Origin: Clavibacter sp. VKM Ac-2873
GTDB lineage: Bacteria; Actinomycetota; Actinomycetes; Actinomycetales; Microbacteriaceae
Reading direction: 5' to 3'
NCBI RefSeq assembly: GCF_015351075.1
Contig: NZ_JADKRS010000001.1
Location: 186,001-250,000, forward strand
DNA: 64,000 nt
Part shown: piece by piece, positions 33,884 to 40,134 of the stretch
Layout of the letters: every line of letters begins with the position of its first letter
Position numbering within the stretch: position 1 is the stretch's first letter
Notes under the pieces: model-generated
Seen by the model: the letters and a program-made list of their open reading frames with translations, nothing else
Told to the model about the DNA's origin: nothing
The model's database searches: none
Translations under genes and position numbers: made by a program

Positions 33884-35962
33884 TCACACGTCGATGCGGT
33901 CCCGCACGGATCCGGCGCCGTCGATGATGAACTCCTTGCGGGGCGCGACGTCGTTGCCCATGAGCAGCTCGAACATGCGGGTGGCCGCCTCGGCGTCGTC
34001 GACGCGCACGCGGCGGAGCGTCCGGTTGCGGCGGTCCATCGTGGTCGTGGCCAGCTGGTCGGCGTCCATCTCCCCCAGGCCCTTGTAGCGCTGGATGGGG
34101 TCCTGGTAGCGCTTGCCCTGCCTCTTCGCCTGGGCGAGCACGGCCGCGAGCTCGCGCTCGGAGTAGGTGTAGATCACGTCGTTGGGCTTCGAGCCCGGGT
34201 TCATGACGACCACGCGGTGCAGCGGCGGCACGGCGGCGAACACGCGGCCCTCGTCGATCATGGGCCGCATGTAGCGGAAGAAGAGCGTGAGCAGGAGCGT
34301 GCGGATGTGGGCGCCGTCGACGTCCGCGTCGCTCATGATGATGATCTTCCCGTAGCGCGCCGCCGACAGGTCGAAGGTGCGGCCGGATCCGGCGCCCAGA
34401 ACCTGGATGATCGACGCGCACTCCGTGTTGGAGAGCATGTCGGGCAGGGAGGCCTTCTGGACGTTGAGGATCTTGCCGCGGATGGGCAGCAGCGCCTGGT
34501 ACTCGCTGTCGCGCGCGAGCTTCGCCGTGCCGAGCGCCGAGTCGCCCTCGACGATGAAGAGCTCGCTGTTGGCGACGTCGTTCGACCGGCAGTCCACGAG
34601 CTTCGCCGGGAGGGACGAGCTCTCCAGCGCGTTCTTCCGCCGCTGGGTCTCCTTGTGGGTGCGCGCGGAGATGCGCGACTTCATCTCGCCCACGACCTTC
34701 TCGAGGAGCACGGCGGTCTGCGCCTTGTCCTCGCGGCGCGTCGAGGCGAAGCGCTCGGCCATGGCCTTCTGGACCACCTGCGACACGATGGCGCGGACGG
34801 CGGGCGTGCCGAGCACCTCCTTGGTCTGGCCCTCGAACTGCGGCTCCGGGAAGCGGACCGTGAGGACGGCCGTGAGACCGGCGAGCACGTCGTCCTTCTC
34901 GAGCTTGTCGGTGCCGACCTTCAGCTTGCGCGCGTTGGCCTCGACCTGCGCGCGCACGAACTTGAGCAGTCCCGCCTCGAAGCCCGCCTGGTGGGTGCCG
35001 CCCTTGGGCGTGGAGATGATGTTGACGAACGACTTGAACCGGGTGTCGTAGCCGGTGCCCCAGCGCAGCGCGATGTCGACGGCGCACTCGCGCGTCAGCT
35101 CGGTCGGCACCATGGCGCCGCCGTCGGTGAGCACGGGCACGGTCTCGGTGAACGTGCCCGACCCCTCGAGCCGCCACGTGTCCGTCAGCGGCGCGTCGAC
35201 GGCGAGGTGGTCCACGAACTCCGCGATGCCGCCGTCGAAGCGGAAGGACTCGTGCACGGGCTGCTCGCCGCGCAGGTCCTCGATGTCGATGCGCAGCCCG
35301 GGCACGAGGAAGGCCGTCTGTCGCGCGCGGCCGAGGAGCTCCTCGGTGAGGAACGAGGCGCCGCGCGTGAAGATCTGCCGGTCGGCCCAGTAGCGGATCC
35401 GCGTGCCGGTCACGCCCTTCCGCACCTTGCCGACGACCCGCAGCTCGCTCCCGGACGTGAACGGACGGAACGGCGCGTCGGGGCTCGCCTCGCCCTCGTC
35501 CTCGAAGATGCCCGGCTCGCCGCGCCGGAAGGACATGGCGTACGTCTTGCCGCCGCGGTCGACCTCGACGTCGAGACGCTCCGACAGGGCGTTCACGACG
35601 GACGCGCCCACGCCGTGCAGGCCGCCCGACGAGGCGTAGGAGCCGGATCCGAACTTGCCGCCGGCGTGCAGCTTGGTGAACACGACCTCGACGCCGGAGA
35701 GCCCGGTCTTGGGCTCGATGTCGACCGGGACGCCCCGCGCGGTGTCCCGCACCTCGACGCTCCCGTCCGGGTGGAGCCGCACGTCGATCAGGTCGCCGTG
35801 CCCGCCGAGGGCCTCGTCGACGCTGTTGTCGATGATCTCCCAGAGGCAGTGCATGAGGCCGCGCGAGTCGGTGGATCCGATGTACATGCCAGGCCGCTTG
35901 CGCACCGCCTCGAGGCCCTCGAGGACGGAGAGATGGCGGGCGGAATAATCGGATGCTGCCAC
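33884..35962 (-). CDS. parE: Type IIA topoisomerase subunit B (topoisomerase IV-like)
   Basis: A 692-aa GyrB/ParE ATPase subunit. GHKL ATPase motifs: EIIDNSVDEA, DTARGVPVD and GGLHGVGASVVNAL. The TOPRIM metal site has EGDSALGTAK and DADVDGAH. EGDSALG replaces the gyrase-type EGDSAGG, as in other actinobacterial second-topoisomerase subunits. Ends after the YKGLGEM motif with a short tail. Forms the enzyme with the convergently encoded subunit A. Confidence 0.92.
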   Translation of the reverse strand: MAASDYSARHLSVLEGLEAVRKRPGMYIGSTDSRGLMHCLWEIIDNSVDEALGGHGDLIDVRLHPDGSVEVRDTARGVPVDIEPKTGLSGVEVVFTKLHAGGKFGSGSYASSGGLHGVGASVVNALSERLDVEVDRGGKTYAMSFRRGEPGIFEDEGEASPDAPFRPFTSGSELRVVGKVRKGVTGTRIRYWADRQIFTRGASFLTEELLGRARQTAFLVPGLRIDIEDLRGEQPVHESFRFDGGIAEFVDHLAVDAPLTDTWRLEGSGTFTETVPVLTDGGAMVPTELTRECAVDIALRWGTGYDTRFKSFVNIISTPKGGTHQAGFEAGLLKFVRAQVEANARKLKVGTDKLEKDDVLAGLTAVLTVRFPEPQFEGQTKEVLGTPAVRAIVSQVVQKAMAERFASTRREDKAQTAVLLEKVVGEMKSRISARTHKETQRRKNALESSSLPAKLVDCRSNDVANSELFIVEGDSALGTAKLARDSEYQALLPIRGKILNVQKASLPDMLSNTECASIIQVLGAGSGRTFDLSAARYGKIIIMSDADVDGAHIRTLLLTLFFRYMRPMIDEGRVFAAVPPLHRVVVMNPGSKPNDVIYTYSERELAAVLAQAKRQGKRYQDPIQRYKGLGEMDADQLATTTMDRRNRTLRRVRVDDAEAATRMFELLMGNDVAPRKEFIIDGAGSVRDRIDV

Positions 35963-36175: not shown

Positions 36176-36403
36176 ATGACACCGACCGCGACCGAGCGTC
36201 CCGTGGACGAGCTCGACAACAACCAGCTCACCGCCAACGACCGCTGCGACAGCTGCGGAGCCCAGGCGTACATCCGCGTCGAGGTGAACAGCAGCGAGCT
36301 CCTCTTCTGCGCCCACCACGGCAAGAAGTACCAGGAGAAGCTGTCGGCCATCGCCACGAGCTGGCACGACGAGTCGAGCCGACTGCTCGACGAGCGCGCC
36401 TAG
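36176..36403 (+). CDS. DUF7455 small zinc-ribbon-like protein
   Basis: A 75-aa protein with CDSCG (about residues 24-28) and CAHHG (about 46-50), forming a likely CxxC/CxxH zinc site. It matches the small DUF7455 family encoded near sigA in actinobacteria. Function unknown. GGAGGGG lies upstream of the ATG. Divergent from parE. Confidence 0.85.
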   Translation: MTPTATERPVDELDNNQLTANDRCDSCGAQAYIRVEVNSSELLFCAHHGKKYQEKLSAIATSWHDESSRLLDERA

Positions 36404-36504: not shown

Positions 36505-37239
36505 TCAGTAGTGCGCGGGTCGCGCCATCACGGTCGCCCGCGCCTCGCGCGCCCACTCGTCGAGCCGCTCGAGCGTCCCCGAGATGTCCGCGGGCAGCTC
36601 ACGGCCGTGTCGGGCGAGGGCCGTCGACAGCAGCTCGTCCGCGAGCCGCGGGTTGAGCGCGAGGACGGGGCCGCCGAGGTGCGTGCCGATGGACCCGCCC
36701 ACGCGGACGCCCTCCCCCCCGCCCTGGCCGGCGTTGCCGAAGCCGGCGCGCACCGTCCCGAGGGGCGACGACGTGCCGATGTCGAGGGTGGATCCGTGGT
36801 TCTCGTAGCCGACGACATCGCCCTCCGGCGTGTCGAGCACGAGGTCGCCCACGCGCCGTTCGGCCGTCAGCGTGGTGCGCACCGGCAGGACGCCCGCGCC
36901 CACGAGCTCGCCGCCGTCGACGAGGCGGACGGACTCCCCCAGGATCTGCAGGCCGCCGCCGACCGCGAGAAGCGGGACGCCGGCCTCGTGCAGCGCGATG
37001 AGGCGCGGGGCATGCGCGACGAGGTCCGGCAGGACGGCGCGCTGCGCCGTGAGCGGTCCGGATCCGACGACGACCAGGTCGGCATCGCCCGGGTCGCCGC
37101 CGCCCGGGGCGTGCCGGACGACCTCGGTGCGGATCCCGCGGATGCGCGCGCGCTCGACGAGCACGGTCACGTTCCCGCGGTCGCCGTTGATGCCGAGCTC
37201 CTCGGGGTACAGGTGCAGGATGCGCAGGGCGTCGCTCAC
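36505..37239 (-). CDS. gatD: GatD-like glutamine amidotransferase, catalytic Cys and His missing
   Basis: A 244-aa class I glutamine-amidotransferase-like protein of the CobQ/GatD type, partner of MurT. It has LYPEELGINGDRGNV at the N-terminus and YENHGS at 145-150, typical of GatD, which supplies ammonia to MurT. But the nucleophile-elbow reads A92-V-G-G-G-L-Q98 where GatD has (I/V)CGGxQ, so position 94 is Gly rather than Cys. The LHGP catalytic His motif is L188-G-G-P191. There is no cysteine anywhere in the protein. It therefore should not hydrolyse glutamine by the usual route. GTG start overlaps the murT stop (GTGA). Confidence 0.9.
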   Translation of the reverse strand: MSDALRILHLYPEELGINGDRGNVTVLVERARIRGIRTEVVRHAPGGGDPGDADLVVVGSGPLTAQRAVLPDLVAHAPRLIALHEAGVPLLAVGGGLQILGESVRLVDGGELVGAGVLPVRTTLTAERRVGDLVLDTPEGDVVGYENHGSTLDIGTSSPLGTVRAGFGNAGQGGGEGVRVGGSIGTHLGGPVLALNPRLADELLSTALARHGRELPADISGTLERLDEWAREARATVMARPAHY

Positions 37240-38516
37240 GCGGGTCCTCCCTCGAGGTCCGTGTACCCGAGGATGCGGCGGATCGCCATCATCTGCTCGT
37301 AGTTGACGATCATGGTCTTCACCCCGCGGGACGGCTTCCCCATCGCGAGGAACGCCTGCACCGCACGGCGCAGGTCGGGCTCGACCCGGCCGACCTCGAG
37401 GCCCTCGTACCCGAAGCGCACGGCCAGCTGGTAGCCCTTCGTGCCGGAGACGACGTCGGCGTGCGTGAGCGCGGAGAGGTCCGTGTCGTAGATCCACGAG
37501 GGGTCCGGCGTGCCGTCGTCCACCGCGAGCAGCACCTGCTCGGGCGGGTCGGCGAGCGCGTCGAGGTTCATCTGCAGGCTCGCCGGGTTCTTCATCATGA
37601 TGATCTCGATGTCCTCGTCGCCGGCGCGCAGCACCTCGCCGCGCCCGTAGACGGCGGCGACGGACCCGAGGCCCTCGGCCGCGCGGGCCGGGTCGAATCG
37701 GTCGCCGAGCACACGGCGCGCGGTCGCCAGCGCCCCCGCGGCGTCGACCGCGTAGTGCAGGCCGCGCGACGGCAGCGTCACCGGGAGGTCGCCGGACGCC
37801 AGGCGGAACACGGCGTCGCGGCCCGAGAGCGCGACGGCCTCGACGCCCGCGGCCACATGCACCGGGTCGGGATCCTCGGAGCCGAACCGCGGTGCGGAGG
37901 CCAGCCCGTGCTTGCTGTCGCCGAGGAGCTCCTCCGACACGCCGAACCAGTCGACGGCGGCGCGGCCGGACCGTGCGGTGTGCGCGGCGATGGCGTTGAC
38001 GTGCGCGTCGTCCCGGTTGGCGACGACCGCCTCGGTCGCCGTGGAGGCGATGCGCTCGAGCATGCCCACGACGCGGTCGGGCTCGTGGAACCGGTTGAGC
38101 TGGTCGATCTGGATGTTGAGCAGCAGCACCGTCCGCGGGGTGAGCAGAGCGGAGAGGGCGACGCCGTAGGCCTCGTCGATCTCGAGCACGGCCACGTCGG
38201 CGTCCAGGCGGCCCGACGCGTCGGCGTCCGCGAGCACCGCCGACGCGATGCCCTGCGGCAGGTTGCCGCCCGAGGGGTTCGTGAAGACGCGGAGGCCGTG
38301 GGCGCGCAGCACGGCGGTGAGCATGTGCGTGGTCGTCGACTTGCCGTTCGAGCCCGTGACCGCGACCACCCCGTGGGGCAGGTCGGCGATCGTGCGCTCG
38401 AGGAAGCGGGGATCGAGGCGGAGGGCGACGACGCCGGGCACGGCGGAGCCGCCCCCGCGGAGACGGGCGGCCCAACGGGCGGCCCGTCCCGCGGCGACGG
38501 CGAGGCGTAGGGGCAC
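37236..38516 (-). CDS. murT: MurT-like lipid II ligase subunit lacking the zinc ribbon
   Basis: A 426-aa Mur-ligase-fold protein. The ATP P-loop is TGSNGKSTTT (54-63), followed by EIDEAYG, NIQIDQLNRFHEPDRV and, in the C-terminal domain, the DPSWIYDTDLSAL segment (338-350) of MurT. In MurT/GatD the enzyme activates the D-Glu alpha-carboxyl of lipid II and amidates it. Usual MurT proteins carry a four-Cys zinc ribbon in the middle domain. Here the corresponding stretch (about 200-245) is short and the protein has no Cys at all. GTG start 3 bases after the sigA stop, so sigA-murT-gatD is probably one operon. Confidence 0.9.
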   Translation of the reverse strand: MPLRLAVAAGRAARWAARLRGGGSAVPGVVALRLDPRFLERTIADLPHGVVAVTGSNGKSTTTHMLTAVLRAHGLRVFTNPSGGNLPQGIASAVLADADASGRLDADVAVLEIDEAYGVALSALLTPRTVLLLNIQIDQLNRFHEPDRVVGMLERIASTATEAVVANRDDAHVNAIAAHTARSGRAAVDWFGVSEELLGDSKHGLASAPRFGSEDPDPVHVAAGVEAVALSGRDAVFRLASGDLPVTLPSRGLHYAVDAAGALATARRVLGDRFDPARAAEGLGSVAAVYGRGEVLRAGDEDIEIIMMKNPASLQMNLDALADPPEQVLLAVDDGTPDPSWIYDTDLSALTHADVVSGTKGYQLAVRFGYEGLEVGRVEPDLRRAVQAFLAMGKPSRGVKTMIVNYEQMMAIRRILGYTDLEGGPA

Positions 38517-38519
38517 GGC

Positions 38520-39989
<1,470 letters not shown>

Positions 39990-40134
39990 GCGAACACCTT
40001 TCGTCCCCACGACGACCGGTCGTGCGCTCCGCGGTGATGCTGCGGGGTGACCTGCCGGAGGTGGGTCGGGGTTGTTTTCGGACATTGCTAGGACCCATGT
40101 CAAGTCCGCTGCTCACGCATCACAGATGTGATGC

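What the first reader, a model, noticed from the sequence alone, without database searches (positions are those of the whole stretch)
36505..38516. MurT-GatD pair with a glutaminase-dead GatD and a zinc-less MurT: possible cross-bridge ligase of group-B peptidoglycan
Seen: GatD has Gly94 where the nucleophile Cys is expected (AVGGGLQ) and Gly189 where the catalytic His of LHGP is expected. Neither GatD nor MurT contains any cysteine, so MurT has lost its four-Cys zinc ribbon. Yet both genes are intact, overlap by 4 bases and sit 3 bases behind sigA, and MurT keeps its ATP and C-terminal motifs. Known: MurT/GatD normally amidates the D-Glu alpha-carboxyl of lipid II with ammonia from glutamine (S. 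aureus GatD uses C94 and H189, as I recall). In group-B peptidoglycan, found in Microbacteriaceae, that same carboxyl carries the interpeptide diamino acid, so amidation would be counterproductive. Inference: MurT still activates the carboxyl but accepts a diamino acid, such as D-diaminobutyrate, instead of ammonia, with GatD kept as a structural or substrate-binding subunit. I know of no described enzyme for this step.
Basis: partly seen in the sequence, partly recalled or inferred. Interest (0 to 1): 0.88.

Follow-up and report, generated by a model that had tools for sequence, protein, structure and literature searches.

The report
Repurposed enzyme pair for wall cross-bridges
A cell-wall enzyme pair that normally attaches ammonia has lost its ammonia-making half in one bacterial family, and comparative evidence suggests it now attaches the amino acid that ties neighbouring wall strands together, a step for which we know no enzyme.

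Summary
In detail: GatD has Gly94 and Gly189 where the catalytic Cys and His belong, neither protein has a cysteine, and the pair follows sigA. It is no quirk of one strain. A MurT clade seen only in the window's family (78 of 78 fetched loci without the GatD Cys; 0 of 184 other-family genomes of the order) sits behind sigA, is under purifying selection, and lost the gate Arg135 (0 of 118; 105 of 105 in live pairs). Zinc loss also occurs in live pairs. Behind sigA, other members carry a CofE-like ligase cassette instead (strong CofE in 21 of 29 MurT-less genomes, 0 of 121 others). MurT subtype (residue 139 Tyr versus Asp/Asn) follows the interpeptide diamino acid (Orn/Lys versus DAB) across the species tree; Agreia (L-DAB at position 3, D-Orn bridge) ties it to the bridge. 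Best reading: a ligase putting the bridge diamino acid on the D-Glu alpha-carboxyl, with GatD as pseudo-enzyme partner. Inferred, not assayed. Against: D-Glu amidation is reported in C. michiganensis, many group-B species lack the pair, independent contrasts are few, and several wall types are recalled.

The parts
36505..37239 (-). GatD-like pseudo-glutaminase (244 aa)
   Evidence: PF07685 E 7.1e-18; PDB matches 5n9m/6gs2 GatD E 1e-26; AlphaFold model pLDDT 96.1, Foldseek TM 0.87 to 5n9m
36958..36960 (-). codon of Gly94 in place of the catalytic Cys
   Evidence: alignment to S. aureus GatD, numbering, sequence
36673..36675 (-). codon of Gly189 in place of the catalytic His
   Evidence: alignment to S. 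aureus GatD, numbering, sequence
37236..38516 (-). MurT-like ligase (426 aa), clade D, no cysteine
   Evidence: PF08245 and PF08353; 6fqb MurT E 7e-29; AlphaFold model pLDDT 92.6, best Foldseek match S. aureus MurT 6h5e
38331..38357 (-). P-loop of MurT (TGSNGKSTT, residues 54-62)
   Evidence: G55, G58, K59 invariant in 51 aligned clade-D MurTs
38091..38108 (-). MurT loop IDQLNR (residues 137-142): Ile at the gate-Arg135 position, Asn at the 139 position (S. pneumoniae numbering)
   Evidence: column counts over 119 clade-D, 106 live and 17 T-type MurTs
37503..37505 (-). MurT Asp338 (Asp355 in S. pneumoniae), kept
   Evidence: 113 of 113 clade-D MurTs with a letter there
38520..40103 (-). sigA, upstream gene; MurT starts 3 bases after its stop
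   Evidence: linkage in 74 of 78 clade-D loci of the family survey
36176..36403 (+). small CxxC protein that flanks the place on the other side (called DUF7455 here from memory, no call names it)
   Evidence: read, relatives in 53 loci
33884..35962 (-). parE/gyrB-like gene (name recalled), far border of the exchange place; used for the species tree

Best explanation
The pair is an ATP-dependent ligase of peptidoglycan precursor. MurT activates the D-Glu alpha-carboxyl as an acyl phosphate, as MurT and Mur ligases are thought to do, and joins to it the interpeptide diamino acid (D-DAB in the window's probable organism, D-Orn or D-Lys in the Tyr139 subtype) in place of ammonia. GatD no longer hydrolyses glutamine; it stays because MurT needs it as partner, and its old pocket may help hold the incoming amino acid. 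Shown here: loss of the glutaminase residues and the gate Arg, retention of the ATP site, purifying selection, alternation with a second ligase cassette at one place, and subtype following wall type. Inferred: substrate, product, and the role of GatD.
For: (1) Clade D is one MurT clade (support 0.94) with the GatD Cys lost in 78 of 78 fetched loci and the His in 30 of 78; dN/dS 0.03-0.20 for MurT in 15 pairs and 0.10-0.37 for GatD in 14. (2) Gate Arg135, described as flanking the MurT opening that faces GatD (PMC6085368, passages), is Arg in 105 of 105 live MurTs and 0 of 118 clade-D MurTs with a letter there; Q137, R140 and D355 are kept throughout and D136 in 115 of 118. (3) Precedent: S. 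aureus GatD C94G, the same substitution, abolishes glutamine-dependent but not ammonia-dependent MurT activity, and MurT's interaction with GatD is called crucial (PMC3266927, passages). (4) Same place, other ligase: of 80 loci of the named scan, 77 have 281-7,906 bases behind sigA; 42 carry MurT and 35 a CofE-like gene, none both in the DNA held. In 150 family genomes strong CofE is in 21 of 29 MurT-less and 0 of 121 MurT-bearing genomes, p 2e-19 without phylogenetic correction; three weaker CofE matches are in MurT-bearing genomes. (5) MurT subtype follows the bridge: Tyr139 in Curtobacterium, Frigoribacterium, Agreia and MurT-type Microbacterium; Asp or Asn in Rathayibacter, Cryobacterium, Glaciihabitans, Leifsonia aquatica and the window. 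Tyr139 forms a group in the MurT tree but is rejected as one clade on ParE, AU p 7e-5. Agreia separates bridge (D-Orn) from position 3 (L-DAB) (PMC5945732, passages). (6) An Alr-like racemase lies in the locus in 0 of 9 Asp139 loci against 10 of 18 Asn/Tyr139 loci with 2.9 kb or more.
Against: No assay. C. michiganensis muropeptides are reported with D-Glu amidation or hydroxylation (PMC9603630, passage), which an amidase would explain. Group-B Microbacterium without MurT show that the pair is not needed for group B as such. D-Orn occurs with both the Tyr139 MurT (Curtobacterium, recalled) and the CofE cassette (M. schleiferi; M. testaceum and M. liquefaciens clades; PMC10978784, PMC10757982), so cassette and diamino acid do not map one to one. 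Independent contrasts of bridge against Tyr139: 3 of 3 agree, sign test p 0.25, recalled types included. Exceptions: a MAG named Cryobacterium with Tyr139, and Salinibacterium soli with Asn139 in a genus listed as Lys/Orn. Diamino acids of Curtobacterium, Agromyces, Herbiconiux, Pseudoclavibacter, Galbitalea, Amnibacterium and Okibacterium are recalled. The window's organism is inferred to be Clavibacter, not named by any tool. Some genomes hold a live and a dead pair.
Confidence: 0.6

Rival explanations
1. Ammonia-dependent amidase: MurT with dead GatD amidates the D-Glu alpha-carboxyl with free ammonia, and another enzyme builds the bridge.
For: S. aureus MurT with GatD C94G still amidates lipid II with ammonia at pH 8.5 (PMC3266927, passages). 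D-Glu amidation is among the modifications assigned in C. michiganensis (PMC9603630, passage), and the window genome has no other MurT match.
Against: Loss of gate Arg135 in 118 of 118, residue-139 subtypes that follow the bridge diamino acid, and replacement by a second amide-ligase cassette are not expected of an amidase. The reported amide could be a side product of the same enzyme.
Confidence: 0.15
2. Wall-type marker, not the bridge enzyme: the pair acts on another carboxyl or step of the group-B precursor (position 1 Gly, position 3, or a later edit), and its subtype follows wall type only because the wall genes travel together.
For: The correlation is comparative and rests on few independent contrasts (3 of 3, p 0.25); position 3 also varies between these genera.
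Against: Position 3 and bridge are separated in Agreia and the subtype goes with the bridge (PMC5945732). Studied MurT/GatD pairs act on the D-Glu alpha-carboxyl (PMC3266927), which is the bridge's anchor in group-B walls (2-4 cross-link in PMC9603630; the carboxyl is recalled).
Confidence: 0.12
3. Decaying or regulatory pair without catalysis.
For: GatD has lost its active-site Cys in 78 of 78 and is short or very divergent in some loci.
Against: P-loop residues invariant in 51 aligned MurTs, dN/dS 0.03-0.20, kept behind sigA in 74 of 78 loci.
Confidence: 0.05

Closest known systems
MurT/GatD lipid II isoglutaminyl synthase (S. aureus, S. pneumoniae)
   Same: Overlapping gene pair here, Mur_ligase_M plus MurT_C domains, GatD fold (Foldseek TM 0.87 to 5n9m), P-loop, DQ..R loop and Asp355
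   Different: No catalytic Cys, His absent in the window, no gate Arg135, residue 139 variable, no cysteine ribbon, sigA linkage, scores far under the NCBIfam equivalog cut-offs
Mur ligases MurC-F and archaeal pseudomurein ligases pMurC/E
   Same: Couple an amino acid to a carboxyl with ATP (recalled); structural matches just after MurT
   Different: No GatD partner; the window MurT has the MurT_C domain and lacks the N-terminal UDP-binding domain of MurC-F (recalled)
CofE-like (PF01996) + ATPgrasp_ST (PF14397) + Alr-like cassette behind sigA in other Microbacteriaceae (no published name known to me)
   Same: Same place between sigA and parE, amide-ligase type families; strong CofE never in a MurT-bearing genome of the 150
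   Different: Unrelated protein families; mostly in Microbacterium, whose walls have Lys or Orn, rarely DAB (PMC10757982)
T-type MurT/GatD (GatD FTxNAxExLG, zinc-ribbon MurT)
   Same: Glutaminase residues lost; behind sigA in 8 of 9 family loci; one congener has D and another T in g37, g42, g48, g67
   Different: Gate Arg kept 17 of 17, Asp355 lost 17 of 17, cysteine ribbon present, separate clade shared with unnamed families f56 and f35

Membership tests
MurT/GatD lipid II isoglutaminyl synthase | murT-gatD gene pair with Mur_ligase_M, MurT_C and GATase_3 domains | tested here: met
   4-base overlap
MurT/GatD lipid II isoglutaminyl synthase | glutaminase Cys and His in GatD | tested here: not met
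   Gly94 and Gly189
MurT/GatD lipid II isoglutaminyl synthase | conserved gate Arg135 of MurT | tested here: not met
   Ile in the window; 0 of 118 clade-D MurTs have Arg, 105 of 105 live ones do
MurT/GatD lipid II isoglutaminyl synthase | NCBIfam equivalog score cut-offs | tested here: not met
   MurT 107.5 of 800 bits; GatD 107.8 of 450 and 78.6 of 400; live actinobacterial pairs were not scored, so this row is weak
MurT/GatD lipid II isoglutaminyl synthase | zinc ribbon of four Cys in MurT | tested here: not met
   no cysteine; not a required feature, since live pairs can lack it and PMC6085368 reports it only in some Actinobacteria
MurT/GatD lipid II isoglutaminyl synthase | glutamine-dependent amidation of lipid II | not testable with these tools
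   needs an assay; the residue loss predicts none (C94G in PMC3266927)
Mur ligase superfamily | P-loop GxxGK and Mur ligase fold | tested here: met
Group-B cross-bridge ligase (proposed role, no established family) | adds the interpeptide diamino acid to the D-Glu alpha-carboxyl | not testable with these tools
   comparative support only
Group-B cross-bridge ligase (proposed role, no established family) | present in group-B and absent from group-A organisms | tested here: inconclusive
   clade D in 0 of 184 other-family genomes of the order, whose walls were not established, but absent from many group-B Microbacterium

The most novel reading that the evidence does not exclude
The interval behind sigA is the bridge-determining locus of Microbacteriaceae: two unrelated ligase systems, MurT with a pseudo-GatD and a CofE-like ligase with ATP-grasp and racemases, replace one another there and set which residue is hung on the D-Glu alpha-carboxyl. 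In MurT, residue 139 is a selectivity switch (Asp: DAB, perhaps L; Asn: D-DAB; Tyr: D-Orn or D-Lys), and the emptied glutamine pocket of GatD, where position 189 varies with subtype, has become part of the amino-acid site.
Probability: 0.3. Interest if true: 0.93.

Novelty: new variant of a known kind. Interest (0 to 1): 0.82.

Why it matters
The 2-4 (group-B) cross-link of peptidoglycan has long been known chemically (recalled), yet six searches of an open-access library aimed at its enzyme listed no paper that I recognised as naming one; subscription papers were not searched. If right, a glutamine amidotransferase was turned into an amino-acid ligase by losing its ammonia source, with the dead subunit kept as partner, a clear case of pseudo-enzyme evolution. 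It gives genes, a candidate selectivity residue and a second unrelated candidate system, all testable in harmless species, and could let genome sequence predict wall type in a family where wall type is a standard taxonomic character.

Tried and rejected
Zinc loss as a marker of the new function: rejected, since live pairs lack the ribbon too. Universal group-B enzyme: rejected after MurT-less CofE-type Microbacterium. Subtype following the position-3 residue: disfavoured by Agreia. Simple lysine-versus-ornithine split between CofE and MurT inside Microbacterium: not supported, since D-Orn species carry CofE; a bridge glycine is a possible second variable, untested. A cross-phylum test in group-B Bacillota (Eubacterium, Erysipelothrix) was wanted but not run: the single genome-contig scan went to sigA loci. 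Sequence searches of solved structures for the CofE-like and ATP-grasp proteins gave nothing useful. The viral, phage, plasmid and Rfam tools were not used. In the phylum survey 138 places are listed, 135 outside the window's family; 50 were read: the 30 best and 20 picked by me, which include all seven weaker than 1e-15. Of the 65 order places outside the family 50 were read. Rows left out of the genus-level Fisher test: Salinibacterium (mixed), the Cryobacterium MAG, Leifsonia sp. ALI-44-B, and genera whose wall I did not know.
Full report
1. Observation. The window holds, on the minus strand, sigA (38520-40103), MurT (37236-38516) and GatD (36505-37239); MurT starts 3 bases after the sigA stop and overlaps GatD by 4 bases. 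Against S. aureus GatD the nucleophile Cys and the catalytic His are both Gly, at residues 94 and 189 of the protein itself. Neither protein has a cysteine. MurT keeps Mur_ligase_M and MurT_C domains. One MurT was found in the genome. No tool names the organism; the window's ParE falls among named Microbacteriaceae, and I take it to be Clavibacter by inference.

2. A family trait, not an accident. In 150 genomes of the window's family PF08353 matched 103; all 107 places were fetched and each holds a MurT and a GatD. A MurT tree made without GatD puts 78 loci in one clade (support 0.94, no other tip inside), here called clade D. In all 78 the GatD Cys is replaced (G 53, A 16, S 4, N 3, T 2); the His is kept in 48. 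MurT has no CxxC in 78 of 78. Seventeen loci have live Cys/His GatDs; only 3 of those have a CxxC, so ribbon loss is not tied to the dead GatD, and PMC6085368 (passages) already notes the ribbon in only some Actinobacteria. Clade D lies behind sigA in 74 of 78 loci; no sigA end was seen in the stretch held around the 17 live pairs. With a clade-D profile 121 of 150 genomes match at 1e-20: by score and tree I count about 95 with clade D, 11 with only a live ribbon-less pair, 3 live with ribbon, 9 T-type and 3 odd; three (G054, G066, G124) hold a live and a clade-D pair. dN/dS in 15 related pairs is 0.03-0.20 (MurT) and, in 14, 0.10-0.37 (GatD; one pair failed; the GatD stretches carry some upstream overlap).

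3. Outside the family. In the order, 71 of 198 genomes match PF08353, 6 of them of the family. Clade D (580 bits or more) occurs in 9 of the 14 family genomes of that draw and 0 of the other 184, whose best match has 425 bits. Of 100 loci fetched outside the family (50 of 65 order places; 50 of 135 phylum places, which include all seven weaker than 1e-15), 96 GatDs could be read: 89 live, 7 dead. The 7 dead ones come from two unnamed families and are of another type (T): zinc-ribbon MurT and GatD FTxNAxExLG. The T-type also occurs behind sigA in some genomes of the window's family (8 of 9 loci) and the two sets group in the MurT tree.

4. Active site. In S. pneumoniae numbering, gate Arg135 is Arg in 105 of 105 live MurTs, 17 of 17 T-type and 0 of 118 clade-D MurTs; Q137 and R140 (118 of 118), D136 (115 of 118) and D355 (113 of 113) stay in clade D; residue 139, Asp in 105 of 105 live pairs, is D 42, N 36, Y 35, F 3, H 2. 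PMC6085368 (passages) places Arg135 beside the opening of MurT that faces GatD and residues 137-141 in a loop that may bridge over the GatD active site. GatD position 189 varies with it: His in 23 of 28 Asp139, 20 of 27 Asn139 and 4 of 18 Tyr139 loci. Models are confident (MurT pLDDT 92.6; GatD 96.1) and match MurT and GatD structures best. In S. aureus the C94G GatD loses glutamine-dependent but keeps ammonia-dependent MurT activity, and the interaction with GatD is described as crucial (PMC3266927, passages). So a dead GatD can serve a MurT that takes its amine from outside.

5. An exchange place. In 29 of the 150 genomes no MurT was found. Behind sigA many of these carry a PF01996 (CofE-like) gene, mostly with a PF14397 ATP-grasp gene on the other strand and one or two alanine-racemase-like genes, before the small CxxC protein and parE. 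A CofE profile finds strong matches (1e-112 or better) in 21 of those 29 and in 0 of the 121 MurT-bearing genomes (p 2e-19, not corrected for relatedness). In G044 and G094 the CofE gene lies on another contig than sigA. Three weaker matches lie in G053, G123 and G147, which have MurTs. Members of one genus code differ: D versus CofE in g7, g9, g13, g57, g76, g84; D versus T in g37, g42, g48, g67; T versus CofE in g58. In some genomes, including live-pair ones, only the small CxxC protein lies between sigA and parE.

6. Named species. 77 have 281-7,906 bases behind sigA: 42 carry MurT (within 1.1 kb) and 35 CofE, none both in the DNA held. No Cys in the 31 GatDs of these that could be read. 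MurT: Rathayibacter, Curtobacterium, Leifsonia, Cryobacterium, Agreia, Agromyces, Herbiconiux, Pseudoclavibacter, Frigoribacterium, Amnibacterium, Galbitalea, Okibacterium and others, and a few Microbacterium (among them M. aurantiacum, M. aoyamense). CofE: most Microbacterium, some Salinibacterium, Gulosibacter, Pseudolysinimonas; one record is titled Stenotrophomonas. Of 50 of these genomes searched whole, 24 of 24 CofE-type have no MurT match and 26 of 26 others (23 MurT-type, 3 with too little DNA behind sigA) have clade D; the T-type MAG (L355) has both and looks mixed. Leifsonia aquatica has in addition a live pair with gate Arg.

7. Subtype and bridge. The MurT tree of 42 clade-D rows (41 from scanned records, MAGs included, and the window) falls into an Asp139 group (14 rows, 100), an Asn139 group (10 rows, 91) and a Tyr139 group (18 rows, 94; SH-aLRT). 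On a quick ParE tree of 62 rows the cassette states need at least 14 changes, Tyr against Asp/Asn 6, and Tyr139 as one clade against all other rows is rejected (AU p 7e-5). Diamino acids seen in papers (passages, tables or cited titles): C. [quoted passage not shown] Rathayibacter species split off a genus defined by B2gamma DAB, and Leifsonia a DAB genus by a cited title (PMC5882085); Cryobacterium and Glaciihabitans DAB, Frigoribacterium D-Lys, Salinibacterium Lys/Orn (PMC7033078); Agreia L-DAB with D-Orn (PMC5945732); Microbacterium L-Lys, D-Orn or DAB by strain (PMC10757982). Asp/Asn139 goes with Clavibacter (the window), Rathayibacter, Cryobacterium, Glaciihabitans and Leifsonia, and Tyr139 with Frigoribacterium, Agreia and MurT-type Microbacterium (Fisher 5 versus 3, p 0.018; with recalled genera 10 versus 5, p 0.0003; neither corrected for relatedness; Salinibacterium and three doubtful rows left out). 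Independent contrasts: 3 of 3 agree on well supported branches, p 0.25. Agreia matters most: position 3 is L-DAB, the bridge D-Orn, and its MurT is the Tyr type. From memory, Rathayibacter and Agromyces have only L-DAB and Clavibacter both isomers, which would split Asp139 from Asn139; not checked (one search failed). An Alr-like racemase lies in the locus in 0 of 9 Asp139, 6 of 8 Asn139 and 4 of 10 Tyr139 loci (Asp against the rest p 0.009); the window itself has none there.

8. Against. PMC9603630 lists amidation or hydroxylation of D-Glu among C. michiganensis muropeptides. D-Orn species use both systems. Exceptions: Cryobacterium ACE_ACT10 MAG (Tyr), Salinibacterium soli (Asn), and Leifsonia sp. 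ALI-44-B (Tyr), whose ParE and MurT are next to identical with Okibacterium, so its name is doubtful. No group-B lineage outside the family was tested.

9. Verdict. By anatomy the pair works like a Mur ligase with a pseudo-glutaminase partner. It descends from MurT/GatD but fails that family's tested catalytic features, so it should not be called an isoglutaminyl synthase. Its likeliest job is joining the bridge diamino acid to the D-Glu alpha-carboxyl (confidence 0.6).

Noticed in passing
L317:54-3796, L308-L324, 35 loci of L328-L407: CofE-like (PF01996) gene, mostly with ATPgrasp_ST (PF14397) and one or two Alr-like genes, between sigA and parE in Microbacteriaceae without MurT; a candidate second cross-bridge system.
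   Followed up: partly
L278-L284 (families f56 and f35, unnamed), L019-L026, L080, L355: T-type MurT/GatD: dead GatD (FTxNAxExLG), zinc-ribbon MurT without Q137 and Asp355; shared by some genomes of the window's family and two other families. Function unknown.
   Followed up: partly
L027, L028 and sigA loci L188, L197 (G053, G123): In G123 a divergent CofE-like gene directly behind sigA is followed by an odd zinc-ribbon MurT and dead GatD, so both systems stand together; in G053 the same two genes lie about 260 kb from sigA.
   Followed up: no
L329 (JACEFY010000023.1): A record titled Stenotrophomonas maltophilia carries a sigA-CofE-parE stretch whose ParE falls inside Microbacterium; probably a contaminated or mislabelled assembly.
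   Followed up: no
L396 (Cryobacterium sp. ACE_ACT10 MAG): Tyr139 MurT in a record of a DAB genus; Cryobacterium inferilacus from an Antarctic lake is reported with ornithine plus DAB (PMC12113805, passages), so such a wall may exist there.
   Followed up: no
L352 and L340: Leifsonia sp. ALI-44-B has a ParE and MurT next to identical with Okibacterium fritillariae; the record's genus name looks wrong.
   Followed up: no
L501, L505 (G702, Curtobacterium flaccumfaciens): MurT and also ParE are matched in two pieces each, suggesting sequence errors in that record rather than a broken gene.
   Followed up: no
order survey: PMC6085368 calls murTgatD universally present in Actinobacteria, but only 71 of 198 genomes of the window's order match MurT_C at 1e-3, and weak members are missed by that model.
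   Followed up: no
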